Assembly (NCBI RefSeq): GCF_003002955.1 | Contig: NZ_PVTJ01000002.1 | Location: forward strand, 1-64,000 | Direction of reading: 5' to 3' | Origin: Glycomyces artemisiae | GTDB lineage: Bacteria; Actinomycetota; Actinomycetes; Mycobacteriales; Micromonosporaceae | Length of the DNA stretch: 64,000 nucleotides | In this document: piece after piece, positions 591-13,332 of the stretch | Layout: each line of letters opens with the position of its first letter | How positions within the stretch are numbered: the stretch's first letter is position 1 | Made by a program: the position numbers and the translations under genes | Notes under the pieces: model-generated | What the model was told of the DNA's origin: nothing | The model's database searches: none | Seen by the model: the letters and a program-made list of their open reading frames with translations, nothing else

Positions 591-1724
591 CTACTCGTAC
601 AGGTCGTCGGCCGCCTTGCCGATGCCCCAGACGTCCTCGTCGGGGTCCTCGATGAGCGTCGACTCGCGCGCGTTCTCATCCTCGGGCCGCCCGCCGCCAC
701 CCCCGCGGCCGCCGCCCATCATGCCGCCCGCCCCACCCGCGCCAGAAGCGGCCGCCGCGGGCACGCCGCCCGGAGCACCGGTCGCGCCGACGGGAACCGA
801 GGAGCCGGCCGAGACGCCCGCAGCACCCGTCGAAAGCCCGCCGCCGAGACCGCCGCCCGCACCGCCGCCGAGGCCCGCGCCGGAGGCGAGGCCGCCGGAG
901 TAGTCCTCCGGGTCGAGTTCGGAGGCGTCCCAAGGGTTCTCAAGGTCGGGGGTCTCCGGCTGCGCGAGGTCCTCCATGCCCGAAGGGGTCTCAGGCGTGG
1001 TCGGCTGCTCCGCGCCCGGCTCCCCGGCCTGGTCCTCCTGGCCGGGCTGCTCCTCCTCCTGCTTCTCCTCGTCGGTCTGCTCCTCCTCGGACTCCTCGCC
1101 CTCGCCTCCGGAGGAGCCGTCGCCGCCGGTGCCGGAGTGGTCCTCCGCCATCTCGTTCATGCTGTGGTCGTCTCCGCCGGACGTCCTGTCCTCCAAGGGC
1201 TTCAGCAGGTCCGCCGCGGCTGTCAGCGCGGCGCCCGCAGTCGCGTCGGCGGCGTTGACGAGGGTCGTGAGCGTCTGGAGGCCGAGGGTCCCGGCGAGGG
1301 CCTGGGCCTGGAGCGCGGCCTCGATGATGCCGCCGAAGGGTCCGGCCGCCGCGATCGCGGCCCGCTGCGCCGCACCGAGGGTCACGAGGGGCGCGGGCTG
1401 GATGTCGAAGCCCACGGCCTTCAACGCGGTGTCGGCGGCCCGCAGGAGCGTGCACTCGGTGAGCATCTGCGACCCGGCCGCGGCGAGGCTCCCCGCGGTC
1501 GTGGTGATCTCGCCGATGACCTGGCCCAGGTGGGCGGTGACGGTGCCGACCTCCCCGTTGAAGGCGTCGTTCGCGGTGTCGCGCCAGTGCTGGTTGATCC
1601 CGGCGACGTTCTGGCCGTACTCGGTCTGCTGCGCGGCGAGATCGCTTGCGGCCGCGGCCATCTCGGAGGCGTACGTGATGAACTCGGTGGGCTGCGCCGC
1701 AAGGGCGTCCTGGTAGCTGGGCAT
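591..1724 (-). CDS. Type VII secretion-like substrate with Gly-rich tail
   Basis: The protein has 377 residues. ATG at 1724 is preceded by GGAGAGGAC on the minus strand, so I reject longer upstream starts. Residues about 1-170 are Ala-rich helices with a WXG-like turn (NQHWRDTANDAF near residue 47), as in WXG100/PPE-type substrates. An acidic Glu/Gln segment follows, then a Gly/Ala-rich disordered region and a conserved-looking end, DEDVWGIGKAADDLYE. The motif NPWDASELDPEDYSGGLASG recurs in similar form in the divergent gene at 2256, as does the VWG...D.Y ending. Eight bases separate it from the small helical protein upstream, so they are probably co-transcribed. The exact function is unknown. 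Secretion by an ESX-type system is inferred from fold features and layout, and no core ESX component is in the window. Confidence 0.75.
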   Translation of the reverse strand: MPSYQDALAAQPTEFITYASEMAAAASDLAAQQTEYGQNVAGINQHWRDTANDAFNGEVGTVTAHLGQVIGEITTTAGSLAAAGSQMLTECTLLRAADTALKAVGFDIQPAPLVTLGAAQRAAIAAAGPFGGIIEAALQAQALAGTLGLQTLTTLVNAADATAGAALTAAADLLKPLEDRTSGGDDHSMNEMAEDHSGTGGDGSSGGEGEESEEEQTDEEKQEEEQPGQEDQAGEPGAEQPTTPETPSGMEDLAQPETPDLENPWDASELDPEDYSGGLASGAGLGGGAGGGLGGGLSTGAAGVSAGSSVPVGATGAPGGVPAAAASGAGGAGGMMGGGRGGGGGRPEDENARESTLIEDPDEDVWGIGKAADDLYE

Positions 1725-1732
1725 GTCCTCTC

Positions 1733-2056
1733 CTATCGCCGCGGGCCGGTCGGGAGCTGGTTCTGGATGGCGGCGAAGCGGTTCCCCGTCTCCTGGTCGT
1801 TCGCCTCCGCGTCGTCGGCGCTGCCGACGACCTGGTCGCCCTGCCATGTGAGGCGCCGCTCGACGGCGCTCGCGACGGCATGGAGCGAGGTCTGCCAGCG
1901 CCGGCCCGCGTCGCCGGTCGCGAAGCCGCGGTTGCGGTCCGCGGCCGACGCCGCCGGGCGCTCCACCCGCCTGGGCGCGGCCTGGCTGTGCGAGGCCATT
2001 GCGCGCAGGCCGGTGCCGCCCGTTCGCACGCCTTCGACGTCCATGTGCACGGTCAT
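1733..2056 (-). CDS. Small helical EspC/WXG-like partner protein
   Basis: A 107-residue protein that begins MTVHMDVEGVRTGGTGLRAM and is predicted to form two amphipathic helices, the size and layout of EspC/WXG100-type secretion partners. No classical WXG motif is visible; the turn region carries GRRWQTSLHAV instead. It lies directly upstream of the larger Gly-rich protein (8-base gap), matching the usual order in which a small helical partner precedes a bigger substrate. The VDVEG-like start resembles EspC-family N termini, but the similarity is weak. A role as secretion partner or chaperone for the 377-residue neighbour is inference. Confidence 0.65.
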   Translation of the reverse strand: MTVHMDVEGVRTGGTGLRAMASHSQAAPRRVERPAASAADRNRGFATGDAGRRWQTSLHAVASAVERRLTWQGDQVVGSADDAEANDQETGNRFAAIQNQLPTGPRR

Positions 2057-2255
2057 GGGTTCCTCCTTCGAATCCGCACTCCCGGACGGGCGCCCGGCGG
2101 CGTTCCGAGCACTCTCCCGCCAGGGGCCACCGATCGGTCACCGCTGCGCCCGAATGGTCCGATGACGGATGTGTGACCGCCCGGTCTTCCATGGGCCGCA
2201 TGGATCCGAGACCGGGCCCGCCGGGGCCCGGGTCCGCCAGAGGAGGTGCGCTGCG

Positions 2256-3767
2256 ATGACCGACGACCTGTCCGCGACCGGCGAGGGGGCCGCCTGGTCG
2301 GTCGAGCTGCCGTCGTTCGAGTTCGCGATCGCGTTCGGGGACGCCGCGACCGGCGGTGAGCGGGCCGGGTGCTCGGCGGGGGACTGCCCGCACCCGGTGG
2401 CGCATCCGGCGGAGGAGGACTGGGTGCAGCTCGCCTCCGCGGTCCCCGTGGAGGGCCAGTCGGCGAGGTTGAAGCCGCGCTGCGAGGGCATGGCCTATCC
2501 GACCGAGGACGATTTCAGGGCGGCCGTGAACGCCGTCAGGCCGGAGGACCCCGACGCGTTCTCGTTGCAGCGTCTGCGCAGCGGCTGGACCGAGGAGGTC
2601 GGGGAGCGGATCGCGTCGTGGCCCGACCGGATGCGCTCGAAGCTCGCGTCGCTCGCCGAAGGCTGGGCGGGGGACGACTTCGACGCGCTCGCCGAGCAGG
2701 CCGACGCGGCGCGGGCGCTCGTCGAGGGCGTGCTCGACGACGTGGAGGCGGCGGCCGCGGAGCTGGAGCGGCGCGAGTCGGCGATCTACGCGCTCCAGGG
2801 CGGCGATTCCGGCGAGATCCCGTACCCCGCGCCGCTGGTGGGGGTCGAGGGCGAGTGGTCGGAGCTGGCGGCGCTGCACGTCCGGCCCGCGTGGTGGCAG
2901 GGCGACTGCATCCGCATGACCTGCGAGGAGGCCGAGCGGGCCATGGAGATCGCGGGTGCGGACGCGGCGCTGGCGACGGAGGTGCGGGAGTTCATCGAGG
3001 AGCGGGTGGGCGAGGGCCTGTCGGGCCTGGGCGCGCTGGTGGCCGACGTGCGGTCGACCGCGGGCCTGGAGGCGAAGGACGTCTTCGGGGAGCGGGTGGC
3101 GGCCGAGTTCGCGGCGTACGAGGAGCGGCAGGCGGCGATCGACGAGGCCATCGCGGCGAAGCGCGACGGCCAGAGCGAGGAGCTCGCGGCGGTGCGGGCG
3201 ACCGGTGAGGACCGGCCGTTCCCCGGTACCGCGGACGCGTCGTACATGGATCTCGCCGCGCCGGAGGCGGAGCGGCCCGCGGCGCCGGTCGCGCCGCAGA
3301 CCGTGCAGGACCCGAGCCCGGTCCCGCCCGGCGGCGACGGGTCGGTGCGGGAGCAGGAAAGCCCTTGGGAGGCGCCGGAAGACGACGAGCCGGTGTCCGG
3401 CGGCCTCGCGGGCGGCACCGGAGGAGGCGGCGGGCTCGGGCCCGGCGGCACGCAGGGCTCCGGGTTCGGGGGCCGGGGCGCGGCCGTCGCGGTCGCGGGC
3501 GGGCCGGGCGGGGCCCCGCAGGGGCTGTTCGGTCCGGCGGTGACGACGCCGACCACCGCGACCGCGAGCAGTCCGCGCGGCGGGGGCCTGTTCCACTCGC
3601 CCGCGGGGCAGCAGGTTGCGGCGCCGAAGGACCCGGACCGGAAGGGCAAGGGCGACAAGGAGACCGAGGACGGCGAGGGCTCCGAGGACGAAGCGCCGCA
3701 GCTGTCGCGGCGCGAGACCGGGAACGTGTGGGGCTACGTCAGGCCCACCGAGGACCCCTACAACTGA
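2256..3767 (+). CDS. WXG-containing type VII-like large substrate
   Basis: A 503-residue protein. ATG 2256 follows AGGAGG at 2241-2246. The N-terminal ~90 residues are not recognised. Residues ~110-300 are helical and include LASLAEGWAGDDFDALAEQA, a clear W-x-G turn, then further long helices (EVREFIEERVGEGLSGLG, AAYEERQAAIDEAIAAK). The C-terminal ~180 residues are Pro/Gly-rich, contain SPWEAPEDDEPVSGGLAGG, and end ETGNVWGYVRPTEDPYN. This tail is laid out like that of the divergent 377-residue protein, including the NPW/SPW element and the VWG ending. Four cysteines near the N terminus (residues ~39, 44, 77) are unusual for this class. I infer a secreted type VII substrate; any enzymatic activity is not apparent. 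Confidence 0.75.
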   Translation: MTDDLSATGEGAAWSVELPSFEFAIAFGDAATGGERAGCSAGDCPHPVAHPAEEDWVQLASAVPVEGQSARLKPRCEGMAYPTEDDFRAAVNAVRPEDPDAFSLQRLRSGWTEEVGERIASWPDRMRSKLASLAEGWAGDDFDALAEQADAARALVEGVLDDVEAAAAELERRESAIYALQGGDSGEIPYPAPLVGVEGEWSELAALHVRPAWWQGDCIRMTCEEAERAMEIAGADAALATEVREFIEERVGEGLSGLGALVADVRSTAGLEAKDVFGERVAAEFAAYEERQAAIDEAIAAKRDGQSEELAAVRATGEDRPFPGTADASYMDLAAPEAERPAAPVAPQTVQDPSPVPPGGDGSVREQESPWEAPEDDEPVSGGLAGGTGGGGGLGPGGTQGSGFGGRGAAVAVAGGPGGAPQGLFGPAVTTPTTATASSPRGGGLFHSPAGQQVAAPKDPDRKGKGDKETEDGEGSEDEAPQLSRRETGNVWGYVRPTEDPYN

Positions 3768-3793
3768 GCACCGAGAGCGAAGGAGCGAGACCC

Positions 3794-4090
3794 ATGGGCG
3801 AGCGCGTGTACGACCCGGCGGCGGTCGAGGAGTACCGGCTGTTCCTGCTGGAGCTGATCGGCGAACTGGAGGGCGGCGTCATTCCGGTGCTGGCGCAGGG
3901 GACGCTGAGCCGGGCGCCCGCGTTCGGGACCGCGCCGGGCGCGGCCGACGCCGCGTCCCGCTACCTGGAGTCCCATGCGGCGCTGTGGCGGAACCTCCAG
4001 TACCTGCGCGGGACCCTGCACGGCCTGGAGGCGGCGCTCGCCGGGTCCGAGGGCGGCGATGCGGGCTTCCACTTCACGTTCACCGTGTGA
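3794..4090 (+). CDS. Small helical partner of the WXG-containing protein
   Basis: A 98-residue protein (MGERVYDPAAVEEYRLFLLELIGELEGG...) with a predicted helix-turn-helix hairpin and a short beta-like end, FHFTFTV. GAAGGAG lies about 9 bases before the ATG, and the gene starts 26 bases after the large substrate, so the pair is likely one operon. Together with the divergent pair it gives a symmetrical arrangement: small plus large on one strand, large plus small on the other. No family was recognised with confidence. A WXG100/EspC-like secretion partner is the best guess from size and context. Confidence 0.65.
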   Translation: MGERVYDPAAVEEYRLFLLELIGELEGGVIPVLAQGTLSRAPAFGTAPGAADAASRYLESHAALWRNLQYLRGTLHGLEAALAGSEGGDAGFHFTFTV

Positions 4091-11074: not shown

Positions 11075-12355
11075 ATGCGAAATCCCCTTCTCCGGCCCCG
11101 CGCGCTCGTGGCGGCCGGTGCGGCCGCCGCGCTCGCGCTGACCGCCGCCGCGTGCGGCGACAGCGGCGAGAGCGACGCCGACATCACCTGGTGGCACATC
11201 CAGAACCAGGACCCGCTCATGTCCACGTGGCAGGAGTTCGCCGACGACTTCGGGGCCGAGCACGACGTCACCTTCGACGTGCAGCCCATCGAGAACCAGG
11301 CGTTCAAGGACCGCATGGGCACCGCCTCGCAGTCGGGCGACGTCCCCGACATCTTCCACACCTGGGGCGGCGGCGTGCTCGCCGAGCAGGTCGAGGCCGG
11401 CCTCGTGCAGGACCTCACCGGCAAGCTCGACTGCATCGACCAGATCAACCCGATCGCCTTGGAGCCCTATACGATCGACGGCAAGCTCTACGGCATGCCG
11501 TTCGACGCCGGGGTCGTCGGGTTCTGGTACAACATGGACCTGTTCGCCGAGGCCGGCATCGACGCGCCGCCCGCCACCTGGGACGAGTTCCTCGCCGACG
11601 TCCAGGCCCTCAAGGACGCCGGGATCGCGCCGATCGCCCTCGCGGGCGCCGACCAGTGGCCCGGCCACTACTACTGGACCTACCTCGCCATGCGCACCGT
11701 CGGCCTCGACGGCCTCGAAGCGGCGGCCGAGGCCGGGGACTTCTCCGGCGACGGCTTCGTCCAGGCCGGTCAGATGGTCGCCGACCTCGCCGCCCTGGAG
11801 CCGTTCCAGCCCGGCTTCGAGTCCGCGACCTACGGCGAGGCCGACGGCCAGTCCGCGGTCATGGGCGAAGGGCTCGCCGCCATGGAGCTGATGGGCCAGT
11901 GGGCTCCGCAGGCCCAGCGCGACAACTCCGGCACCGACGGGCCCGAGAACCTCGGGTTCTTCCCATTCCCCACGGTCGAAGGCGGCGTCGGGACCACCAC
12001 CGAGTGGCTCGGCGGCGGCAACGGCTACGCGGTCGCCGCGGACGCGCCCGACGAGGCCCTCGACTTCCTGTGCTACTTCATGGAGCCCGAGAACTACTCG
12101 CGCGCGATCACCGAGGGCAACCTCACCCCGGTCGCCGTCGACACCGCGGCCGTCGCGCCGGACCTGAACGAGGACACCCAGAAGGTCGTCGACGCGCTCG
12201 CCACCGCCACCGGCACGCAGCTGTACCTCGACCAGGCGTACCCGCCGGCCATCGGCGGCGTCATCAACGAGGCCACCGAAGGGCTCATCCTGGGCCAGCT
12301 GACCCCCGACGACTTCGTGTCGATGGTCAACGAGGCGTGGGCGGCCGAGGAGTGA
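11075..12355 (+). CDS. Sugar ABC transporter substrate-binding lipoprotein (CUT1)
   Basis: A 426-residue extracellular binding protein of family 1. ATG 11075 follows AAAGGAAC. The signal sequence ends in the lipobox TAAAC with Cys ~26, so the protein is anchored to the outer membrane face by lipid. The mature part has ITWWHIQNQDPLMSTWQEFADDF and FEAEAGIDAPPATWDEFLADVQALKDAG, typical of carbohydrate-binding type I folds. The stop overlaps the GTG of the first permease (GTGA). No ATPase is encoded nearby, as usual for actinomycete importers that share an MsiK-type ATPase. The operator type hints at a xylan-derived sugar, but the ligand is not certain. Confidence 0.93.
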   Translation: MRNPLLRPRALVAAGAAAALALTAAACGDSGESDADITWWHIQNQDPLMSTWQEFADDFGAEHDVTFDVQPIENQAFKDRMGTASQSGDVPDIFHTWGGGVLAEQVEAGLVQDLTGKLDCIDQINPIALEPYTIDGKLYGMPFDAGVVGFWYNMDLFAEAGIDAPPATWDEFLADVQALKDAGIAPIALAGADQWPGHYYWTYLAMRTVGLDGLEAAAEAGDFSGDGFVQAGQMVADLAALEPFQPGFESATYGEADGQSAVMGEGLAAMELMGQWAPQAQRDNSGTDGPENLGFFPFPTVEGGVGTTTEWLGGGNGYAVAADAPDEALDFLCYFMEPENYSRAITEGNLTPVAVDTAAVAPDLNEDTQKVVDALATATGTQLYLDQAYPPAIGGVINEATEGLILGQLTPDDFVSMVNEAWAAEE

Positions 12356-13332
12356 CGACCACGGAGTCCCCCCGGGTCTCCCCGGGGCGCCCGGACCGCC
12401 GCGAGGGCAAGAGCCCCCGCAAGCGGTCCGGGCGCCCCGGCGCGGGGACCCTCGCGACGTTCATCGCGCCCGGCCTGGTCCTGTTCCTGCTCTTCGTGAT
12501 CCTGCCGGTCCTGTTCGCCGCGTACGTCGCGTTCTTCCGCTGGAACGGGCTCGGCGGCGTCCCCACCGACTTCGTGGGCCTGGAGAACTTCCGCAACCTC
12601 CTCCAGGACGAGGTGTTCCTCGGGGACCTGTGGCGCCTGGGGCTCATCGTGGTCCTCTCGCTGCTGGTGCAGCTGCCGATCTCCTTCGGCCTGGCTATGC
12701 TCCTGCACCAGCGGTTCCCCGGGCGCACCGCGTTCCGGCTCCTGTTCTTCGTGCCCTACGTGCTCACCGAGGCCGTCACCGCGGTCCTGTTCCGGCTCGT
12801 GTTCTCGCCGCGGCGCGGCTTCGCCGACTCGCTCCTGGCGAACCTCGGCGTCGACTCGCAGGTCGGGTGGCTCTCCGACCGCGAGATCGTCATGTTCGTC
12901 ATCTTCGGGATCCTCACCTGGAAGTTCTTCGGCTTCCACATGATCCTGTTCCTCGCCGGGCGCCAGAACATCCCCGACGAGCTGTACGAGGCCGCCGCCA
13001 TCGACGGCGCCACCGGCGCGCAGGCGTTCCGCTCGATCACGCTGCCGCTCATGGGCCCCACGGTCCGCATGATCGTGTTCCTGTCCGTGATCGGCACGGT
13101 CCAGCTGTTCGACCTGGTGTACGTGCTCACCGGCGGCGGGCCGTTCCACGCCTCCGAGACCCTCGCGATCACCATGTACGAGCAGGGCTTCCAGCGCAAC
13201 CAGATCGGGTACGCGTCGGCGCTGTCCATCGCGATGTTCCTCATCAGCCTCGTGTTCGCGCTGTTCTACCAGCGCTTCGTCCTCAACCGCGACCTCCAGG
13301 GGTCGATCACCACCGCCGGGAACCGCTCATGA
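12352..13332 (+). CDS. Sugar ABC transporter permease, subunit 1
   Basis: A 326-residue MalF-like inner-membrane subunit with six predicted membrane segments, beginning after a ~40-residue basic, Pro/Arg-rich cytoplasmic tail. The cytoplasmic coupling loop EAAAIDGATGAQAFRSITLPLMGP (EAA motif) is clear. GTG 12352 overlaps the TGA of the binding-protein gene, which indicates translational coupling. It forms the channel together with the next permease and would be powered by an ATPase encoded elsewhere. The N-terminal start is fixed by the overlap rather than by a distinct ribosome-binding site. Confidence 0.93.
   Translation: MTTTESPRVSPGRPDRREGKSPRKRSGRPGAGTLATFIAPGLVLFLLFVILPVLFAAYVAFFRWNGLGGVPTDFVGLENFRNLLQDEVFLGDLWRLGLIVVLSLLVQLPISFGLAMLLHQRFPGRTAFRLLFFVPYVLTEAVTAVLFRLVFSPRRGFADSLLANLGVDSQVGWLSDREIVMFVIFGILTWKFFGFHMILFLAGRQNIPDELYEAAAIDGATGAQAFRSITLPLMGPTVRMIVFLSVIGTVQLFDLVYVLTGGGPFHASETLAITMYEQGFQRNQIGYASALSIAMFLISLVFALFYQRFVLNRDLQGSITTAGNRS

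What the first reader, a model, noticed from the sequence alone, without database searches (positions are those of the whole stretch)
591..4090. Divergent type VII-like substrate locus with paired small/large proteins and shared C-terminal tails
Seen: two large proteins (377 and 503 residues) on opposite strands each have a ~100-residue helical neighbour. Both large proteins have a helical WXG-type part, then a Pro/Gly-rich tail with NPW or SPW plus acidic residues, then SGGLA-Gly-rich sequence, then a VWG...D.Y ending. Known: WXG/EspC-type hairpins are ESX substrates. Inference: a symmetrical pair of substrates whose common tails could be a shared secretion or assembly signal. No family name is known to me.
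Basis: partly seen in the sequence, partly recalled or inferred. Interest (0 to 1): 0.72.

Follow-up and report, generated by a model that had tools for sequence, protein, structure and literature searches.

The report
Twin ESX substrate pairs, shared tail
Two neighbouring pairs of small and large proteins in a Glycomyces-type soil bacterium look like cargo of its type VII (ESX) secretion machine, and their large members end in a short tail that recurs next to ESX machinery genes in other actinomycetes, which makes that tail a good candidate for a docking signal.

Summary
Window 591-4090 has four genes: P2 (107 aa) + P1 (377 aa) on the minus strand and, divergently, P3 (503 aa) + P5 (98 aa). 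P1 and P3 differ in their N-terminal halves but share a C-terminal module: acidic/Gly-rich linker, then [WF]L-x-E-D-x-D-V-W-G...DDPY (hhalign probability 96.8%, E=2.7e-10). The genome has an ESX core on another contig. The four-gene order is kept in 24 of 26 Glycomyces P1 loci; in the other two P3 is cut at a contig end. P3 has a P5 in 66 of 66, P1 a P2 in 26 of 26. The tail is in 50 of 394 class genomes; all 50 carry EccB, against 147 of 394 overall. Of 34 tail places sharing a contig with a listed EccB, 30 lie within 10 kb. The P5 profile's five best distant hits are genes just upstream of tail genes. The P2+P1 N-module carries toxin domains elsewhere. Best reading: two ESX small/large substrate pairs whose common tail probably docks on the machinery; secretion and docking are inferred. 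A new variant of a known kind.

The parts
591..1724 (-). P1: large WXG-type protein (377 aa); helical N-terminal domain about 1-177, low-confidence acidic/Gly-rich linker, C-terminal tail
   Evidence: WXG100 21.9 bits, below cut-off 27.3; 25 of 25 homologues match at E<=0.1; AlphaFold block means 83-95 for residues 1-170, then mostly <50
591..680 (-). C-terminal tail of P1 (ARESTLIEDPDEDVWGIGKAADDLYE) and stop codon
   Evidence: (own-genome tail profile, E=3.9e-10; this tail is one of the profile's rows)
1733..2056 (-). P2: small partner (107 aa), ending 8 bp before the start of P1, with an invariant WQG
   Evidence: W71 Q72 G73 invariant in 25 of 25; P1 with P2 in 26 of 26
2057..2255 (.). divergent intergenic region; blocks conserved over 24 cassettes of both types, possibly a shared control region
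   Evidence: no sigma-70 consensus promoter found
2256..3767 (+). P3: large protein (503 aa); folded core about 35-350 with three invariant Cys (C39, C44, C218) and a WxG (W137-G139), Pro/Gly-rich linker, C-terminal tail
3684..3767 (+). C-terminal tail of P3 (...RRETGNVWGYVRPTEDPYN) and stop codon
   Evidence: (E=4.6e-12; this tail is one of the profile's rows)
3794..4090 (+). P5: small partner (98 aa) of P3; related to small proteins encoded just upstream of tail proteins in other actinomycetes
   Evidence: P3 with P5 in 66 of 66; five best distant hits

Best explanation
The locus encodes two small/large protein pairs of PE/PPE or WXG type that are exported by the genome's ESX (type VII) system, most likely as folded heterodimers P2-P1 and P5-P3. 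The N-terminal helical halves and the small partners form the export-competent dimer. The common C-terminal tail is a short linear motif on a flexible acidic/Gly-rich arm that docks on a conserved part of the ESX machinery, or on another exported pair passing through it, and so acts in recognition or co-secretion rather than as a toxin. Shown here: the shared tail, strict gene pairing, conserved four-gene order, ESX linkage of the tail and of P5-like partners elsewhere, and use of the P2+P1 N-terminal module to carry toxin domains elsewhere. Inferred: dimer formation, secretion, and what the tail binds.
For: (1) Shared tail: hhalign probability 96.8%, E=2.7e-10. In the own genome the tail profile hits 9 places with E<1e-4, the 7 P3 and 2 P1 paralogues (8 of these 9 tails are rows of the profile); the next hit, E=0.011, is unrelated. 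(2) Strict pairs: P3 with P5 66 of 66, P1 with P2 26 of 26, divergent P3 beside P1 24 of 26, the other two cut at contig ends. (3) ESX linkage elsewhere: 50 of 394 class genomes have the tail at E<=0.01 and all 50 have EccB, against a base of 147 of 394 (hypergeometric 8e-25, ignoring relatedness). With the Glycomyces-only tail profile, the 10 other genomes hit (of 296) all have EccB. 30 of 34 assessable tail places lie within 10 kb of EccB. 15 of 17 fetched tail regions, picked by me from the hits, hold relatives of this genome's ESX proteins. (4) P5 profile (39 of 67 sequences): its five best hits among the ORFs of 18 distant regions are all the gene directly upstream of a tail gene, best E=1.4e-9. 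P3 core without tail: tail proteins of other genera are 5 of its 6 best-ranked ORFs, best E=6.5e-6. (5) P2-like gene + P1-like N-domain precede Pfam toxin domains (ADP-ribosyltransferase, YwqJ deaminase, GH-E nuclease) in five Glycomyces genes. (6) Foldseek's first-ranked PDB entries for both models are PPE proteins. (7) Precedent: removing the last 10 residues of the acidic PPE68 C-terminus stops EspE secretion in M. marinum (PMC9765416, passages and section 7).
Against: No direct evidence of secretion. The four genes are not in the ESX locus of this genome, and no tail protein was found there. 62 of 112 EccB-bearing genomes outside family f8, and all 35 within f8, gave no tail hit at E<=0.01, so the tail is not a general need of ESX. 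The canonical YxxxD/E signal is missing: 3 of 73 P5 and 0 of 26 P2 have it after residue 70. P2 and P5 match no Pfam family convincingly. Window P1 and P3 are below the WXG100 cut-off. The P1 N-domain picks no tail protein in the distant regions, so only its tail links P1 to them; the P5 profile found partners of only 5 of 20 distant tail genes, and 5 of 10 distant tail proteins scanned match no Pfam family. Fold matches are weak: no Foldseek E<=0.001, and unrelated BAR or designed proteins score within 1 Z of PPE41 for both models. 2 of 17 tail regions hold no ESX gene, and 4 of 34 tail places are over 10 kb from EccB, though one of these is at 17 kb and one has a mycosin-like gene next door. 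The Glycomyces ending (DDPYA) differs from the PPVIG-type ending elsewhere.
Confidence: 0.6

Rival explanations
1. The pairs are secreted ESX substrates, but the tail acts after export: an extracellular or cell-wall binding or polymer-assembly tag (surface display), not a machinery-docking signal.
For: The tail is followed by about 34-75 further residues in six distant proteins and by about 40 in the second-cassette P1 proteins, so it need not be the free C-terminus; Gly-rich linkers suit a surface arm; P3 has three invariant cysteines, compatible with disulfides outside the cell.
Against: One short motif is kept across genera and lies next to ESX core genes, which is easier to explain by a partner inside the ESX machinery.
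Confidence: 0.2
2. The four proteins are ESX accessory factors (chaperone, adaptor or gatekeeper) that stay inside or at the membrane and help other cargo out, rather than cargo themselves.
For: Elsewhere the tail protein is encoded near EccB and a mycosin-like gene, like a core part; 10 tail proteins scanned by Pfam have no toxin domain; PPE68 has such a helper role (PMC9765416).
Against: The P2+P1-type module also carries toxins, as a cargo carrier would; in Glycomyces the pairs are dispersed and in several copies, unlike a core part.
Confidence: 0.14
3. The tail resemblance is convergent low complexity: Gly- and acid-rich C-termini with a chance WG.
For: The linker is low-complexity; the profile match of the P3 family to EspB covers the linker and ends at about the WG, so composition does drive some matches.
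Against: Column shuffles reach at most half the score; a strict (post hoc) tail pattern is in 0 of 1111 other ORFs; all 50 tail genomes have EccB.
Confidence: 0.03
4. P1 and P3 are polymorphic toxins whose C-termini are unrecognised toxin domains, with P2 and P5 as immunity proteins.
For: P1-type N-domains carry real toxin domains in other Glycomyces genes.
Against: The C-terminal halves of P1 and P3 are predicted with low confidence, as expected of disorder, and share a module; P2-like genes also pair with versions that bear three different toxin domains, so P2 follows the N-domain and not the toxin.
Confidence: 0.02

Closest known systems
PE/PPE pairs of mycobacterial ESX systems (PF00823; PPE68/PE35, PPE41/PE25)
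   Same: Small/large gene pairs; large member with a helical N-domain and variable C-terminus; PPE proteins rank first in Foldseek for both P1 and P3; PPE68 also ends in a conserved acidic stretch needed for EspE secretion.
   Different: Window proteins do not match PF00823; the tail was not found in 35 EccB-bearing genomes of family f8, which I take to be the mycobacterial family (inference); EspG dependence is untested.
Large WXG100/PPE-like protein plus small partner encoded near EccB and a mycosin-like gene in other actinomycetes (unnamed; this report)
   Same: Same tail core; P5-like small partner in five cases; WXG100 or PPE match in 5 of 10 scanned; ESX neighbourhood in 15 of 17 regions.
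   Different: Glycomyces copies are dispersed away from the ESX core, number 9 tail proteins in this genome, and end in DDPYA instead of PPVIG/PAVIG.
WXG polymorphic toxins of type VII systems (PMC3482391, passages read)
   Same: The P2-like gene + P1-like N-domain is the carrier of ART, YwqJ deaminase and GH-E domains in other Glycomyces genes.
   Different: P1 has the tail in place of a toxin domain.
EspB / EspC family
   Same: Helical N-domain plus long disordered C-terminus in EspB; small helical EspC (both recalled).
   Different: P2: 0 of 25 match EspC at E<=0.1; P5: 1 of 39 at E=0.052. The EspB sequence match of the P3 profile (E=5.7e-4, profile 332-493 of 504) lies in the low-complexity linker.

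Membership tests
WXG100 (PF06013) | score above Pfam cut-off (27.3 bits) | tested here: not met
   P1 21.9, P3 15.5 bits; family-wide 25 of 25 P1 and 29 of 60 P3 homologues match at E<=0.1
WXG100 (PF06013) | helical hairpin with W-x-G in the turn | tested here: inconclusive
   P3 W137/G139 invariant in 60 of 60; P1 has W-x-D (W47/D49 invariant in 25 of 25); P1 model residues 14-80 match EsxEF at Z 11.2, 1.1 A over 67 residues
PPE (PF00823) | match to the PPE model | tested here: not met
   No match at E<=1 for window P1 or P3; 2 of 25 P1 homologues, best E=0.042; one distant tail protein is above cut-off (33.6 vs 26 bits, L195)
PPE (PF00823) | heterodimer with a PE protein and EspG recognition of the helical tip | not testable with these tools
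   no complex prediction available
PPE (PF00823) | PPE fold | tested here: inconclusive
   PPE entries rank first in Foldseek for both but E 0.05 and 0.15; Z 9.6 and 8.5, within 1 of BAR or designed proteins
ESX/T7SS substrate | YxxxD/E signal after helix 2 of one partner | tested here: not met
   Y...[DE] after residue 70 in 3 of 73 P5 and 0 of 26 P2
ESX/T7SS substrate | ESX core in the same genome | tested here: met
   EccB, EccD, EccE and two WXG100 above cut-off, an FtsK/SpoIIIE EccC-like ATPase and a subtilase on contig C15
ESX/T7SS substrate | ESX-dependent export | not testable with these tools
   needs experiment
EspC (PF10824) | match of the small partners to the EspC model | tested here: not met
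   P2 0 of 25 at E<=0.1; P5 1 of 39 at E=0.052
WXG polymorphic toxin | C-terminal toxin domain | tested here: not met
   no toxin domain among the Pfam or NCBIfam matches of P1 or P3 at E<=1; C-terminal halves of low predicted confidence

The most novel reading that the evidence does not exclude
The motif [WFY]-L-x-E-[DE]-x(1,3)-[VI]-W-G near the C-terminus of a large WXG/PPE-like protein is an ESX docking signal used by many non-mycobacterial actinomycetes. The small/large pair that carries it is a main partner pair of their ESX-4-class systems, for which a 2016 survey (PMC4791881) lists two Esx proteins but no PE/PPE pair. Glycomyces has moved this pair out of the ESX locus, multiplied it, and put the same tail on a second, toxin-carrier-type module (P2-P1).
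Probability: 0.38. Interest if true: 0.78.

Novelty: new variant of a known kind. Interest (0 to 1): 0.6.

Why it matters
ESX systems outside mycobacteria are widespread, but what they export and how they pick it is largely open (general knowledge). A 2016 survey gives ESX-4 of non-Mycolata EccB, EccC, EccD, MycP and two WXG proteins (its summary adds rv3446c), notes common insertions and rearrangements, and puts pe/ppe genes in later clusters of the Mycolata (PMC4791881, section 5 and passages). A tail that marks a small/large pair near the ESX core in several genera gives a handle to find such cargo by sequence, and a short element whose mutation can be tested at once. Two unlike carriers in one locus that share only the tail separate 'which pair' from 'which machine' in a natural experiment.

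Tried and rejected
Considered and dropped: (a) symmetrical duplication of one pair: BLASTP of P1 vs P3 and P2 vs P5 shows nothing significant. (b) Toxin/immunity pairs: no toxin domain found in the C-termini. (c) YxxxD/E in the Glycomyces small partners: nearly absent; of 8 distant small partners checked 4 have Y...[DE] somewhere, in L194 and L197 near the C-terminal part. (d) [WFY]xxx[DE] inside the tail as a substitute signal: 43 of 66 P3 and 16 of 26 P1 have it, but acidic composition makes it uninformative. (e) EspB match of the P3 profile: it falls in the low-complexity linker; I did not print that alignment. (f) A tenth weak tail hit in the own genome (C18, E=0.011) lies inside a protein of another type (reads as a NADAR-like domain, recalled) and is chance. 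(g) A palindrome in the divergent promoter: only in the window and one relative; the alignment shows other conserved blocks. (h) Sigma-70 promoter and terminator scan: nothing. (i) Sequence search of solved structures with P1, P5 and P2 alignments: only chance or low-complexity hits. In the VIA second look an absent family is no evidence of absence.

Literature: nine searches, (Glycomyces with type VII secretion, 0 papers; VWG with type VII secretion, 2 papers, listing seen only; letters WLTED or LTEDE: 208 papers, 15 listed, all off topic; the other 193 not seen). Read: passages and section 5 of PMC4791881; passages of PMC3482391, PMC1779556 and PMC1660551; passages and section 7 of PMC9765416; outline with abstract of PMC10653861. 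I saw no description of this tail in these; the library lacks most subscription journals, so this is weak evidence of novelty.

Rows dropped and biases: loci were chosen by a P3 match. 7 of 69 loci (L055, L057, L061, L077, L081, L082, L088) gave no complete P3 ORF and are outside the 66. Two partial P1 fragments (L051, L054) were left out of the 26. Alignment A8 holds 39 of 67 P5 sequences. 8 of 16 rows of tail profile A5 are from the own genome; A10 holds rows from G185, G395 and G028, so these and G000 match by construction; without them 46 of 46 tail genomes have EccB. With a cut of E<=0.01 over 394 genomes a few chance hits are expected. For 22 of 56 tail places the EccB position was on another contig or not printed. 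Genomes are related, so the hypergeometric value overstates independence.


Full report
What is there. The window is the first 64 kb of contig C2 of an unnamed 5.79 Mb genome. Its relatives in a named collection, found with the P3 family, are all Glycomyces (63 of 63 loci). Four genes lie at 591-4090. P2 (1733-2056, -) and P1 (591-1724, -) are 8 bp apart; P3 (2256-3767, +) and P5 (3794-4090, +) run the other way across a 199-bp gap. It is not a tidy mirror image: the small gene comes before P1 but after P3, and BLASTP finds no significant similarity between P1 and P3 or P2 and P5.

Paralogues. The same genome holds seven P3-type proteins, each with a P5-type gene near it. One more place, on contig C4, has the full divergent four-gene cassette, with P1 and P2 copies at 44% and 51% identity. 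In 69 loci (window, five own stretches, 63 Glycomyces loci) a complete P3 ORF was found 66 times, always with a P5; P1 has a P2 in 26 of 26. The four-gene order stands in 24 of 26 P1 loci; in the other two (L055, L057) the P3 match runs to near the end of the contig. In 31 other loci the order is P5-P3 without P1/P2. Among relatives, full-length P1 is in 19 of 22 genomes of the genus and 0 of 19 others; P5 is in 22 of 22, with one weak hit outside the genus. The divergent gap has conserved blocks over 24 cassettes of both types, as a shared control region would.

The tail. P1 and P3 families share PW + acid, SGGLA-Gly, and an end of the form WL-x-ED-x-D-V-W-G...DDPYA. A profile of P1 tails against one of P3 tails gives hhalign probability 96.8%, E=2.7e-10, score 35.1; 30 column-shuffled versions reach at most 17.9. 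A strict pattern, written after seeing the tails, is in 62 of 66 P3, 15 of 26 P1 and 0 of 1111 other ORFs. The second-cassette P1 proteins continue about 40 residues beyond it, so it is not always the very end. In the own genome the tail profile finds the seven P3 and two P1 proteins (8 of these 9 tails are rows of the profile); the next hit (E=0.011) is chance.

Beyond the genus. A tail profile made from Glycomyces only hits 10 other genomes of 296 in the class; all 10 have EccB. A wider profile hits 50 of 394 genomes at E<=0.01. EccB (PF05108) is in 147 of 394, and all 50 tail genomes are among them (46 of 46 without the four that supplied rows); hypergeometric 8e-25 if genomes were independent, which they are not. 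The reverse does not hold: 62 of 112 EccB genomes outside family f8 and all 35 in f8 show no tail. Of 56 tail places outside the own genome, 34 share a contig with a listed EccB; 30 are within 10 kb and 31 within 20 kb. Of 17 tail regions that I chose and fetched, 15 hold relatives of this genome's EccB, EccC, EccD, EccE or MycP; two (L193, L195) do not. The tail core is the same there, but the end is mostly APPVIG, PAVIGR or similar. That f8 is the mycobacterial family is my inference.

The partners elsewhere. For 16 of 20 distant tail genes a GC3-plausible ORF of 123-206 aa (longest start) lies directly upstream (my reading); for three (L181, L182, L183) none was seen. The P5 profile, run on all ORFs of 18 distant regions, has as its five best hits exactly such upstream genes (E 1.4e-9, 4.2e-4, 0.0041, 0.026, 0.029); the other partners were not picked up. 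The P3 N-terminal core, tail left out, ranks tail proteins of other genera as its four best ORFs (E 6.5e-6 to 8.3e-4) and as the sixth. So the P3-P5 pair is related to an ESX-linked pair of other actinomycetes by all three of its parts. P1 is linked to them by the tail only: its N-domain picks no tail protein there. Pfam gives 5 of 10 distant large proteins a WXG100 or PPE match, one above the PPE cut-off (33.6 vs 26 bits, L195), and the other 5 none.

The P2-P1 module. The P1 N-domain occurs without the tail in other Glycomyces genes. Ten regions were fetched; they hold 12 tail-less N-domain ORFs besides one full P1 and one fragment. Of 8 scanned, five join it to a Pfam toxin domain: ADP-ribosyltransferase (E=3.5e-15), YwqJ-like deaminase (two genes), GH-E nuclease (two genes); three do not. 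A P2-like gene lies upstream of each of the five. Polymorphic toxins of type VII systems are built this way (PMC3482391, passages). P2 + P1-N is thus a carrier that in the window bears the tail instead of a toxin.

Structure. AlphaFold gives P1 a confident helical core at about 1-177 and P3 a folded core at about 35-350; most of the rest is below pLDDT 50, the last 20 residues of P3 about 63. Foldseek's first PDB entries are PPE proteins for both, but with E 0.05 and 0.15. VIA Z to PPE41 is 9.6 (158 residues, 3.2 A) for P1 and 8.5 (169 residues, 5.3 A) for P3; BAR domains and, for P3, a designed protein score within 1 of that, so the fold match is only suggestive. P3 has three cysteines kept in 60 of 60.

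How it probably works. P2-P1 and P5-P3 form heterodimers, are recognised by the ESX ATPase complex, and the flexible arm brings the W-L-x-E-D..V-W-G element to a fixed partner in the machine. Precedent, not homology: PPE68 of M. marinum ends in a conserved acidic stretch, and removal of its last 10 residues stops EspE secretion while EsxA is still secreted (PMC9765416, section 7 and passages). Shown: gene pairing, shared tail, ESX linkage, toxin-carrier use of the P2-P1 module. Inferred: dimers, export, docking and its partner.

Comparison with print. [quoted passage not shown] PMC4791881 (2016, section 5 and passages) gives non-Mycolata ESX-4 EccB, EccC, EccD, MycP and two Esx proteins, notes common insertions, and places pe/ppe in later Mycolata clusters; PMC1779556 (2006, passages) lists PE and PPE in actinobacterial clusters. 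I found no account of this tail in nine searches of a limited library. By formal tests the window proteins are not PPE, WXG100 or EspC members at cut-off, though they look built to work like a PE/PPE-type pair; hence a new variant of a known kind.

Noticed in passing
L214, L215, L216, L219, L220 (other Glycomyces-genus genomes): P1-type N-domains with P2-like upstream genes carry ADP-ribosyltransferase, YwqJ-like deaminase and GH-E nuclease domains; one genome (G528) has many such N-domain copies, several with stop codons.
   Followed up: partly
L010 (own contig C2, 468000-485000): Two P3/P5 pairs lie a few kb from a 1046-aa protein that reads as a VirB4/TraC-like ATPase (recalled, no family search) and two small membrane-type proteins, perhaps a conjugation element.
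   Followed up: no
L028, L029, L010 (own genome): A lipoprotein-like gene of 236-268 aa lies between the P5-type and the P3-type gene in these dispersed pairs; the copy scanned (L029) had no Pfam match at E<=0.01.
   Followed up: partly
L009:7330-8004 and L009:12652-13317 (own contig C4): Two similar proteins of 224 and 221 aa flank the second four-gene cassette; the first is a sub-threshold YbaB/EbfC match (21.8 vs 25.5 bits).
   Followed up: partly
L051:9626-9919 and L054:9626-11635: ORFs covering only the middle of the P1 N-domain near the second cassette, possibly decayed copies.
   Followed up: no
L009 about 12300-12600: Short tandem repeats read as (SETR)n in one frame, downstream of the P5 copy on contig C4.
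   Followed up: no
L011/L033 (own contig C15): The ESX core of this genome has two WXG100 genes, one with a YADTE (YxxxE) end, and no tail protein; a second gene with three FtsK/SpoIIIE matches in one frame is on contig C13.
   Followed up: partly
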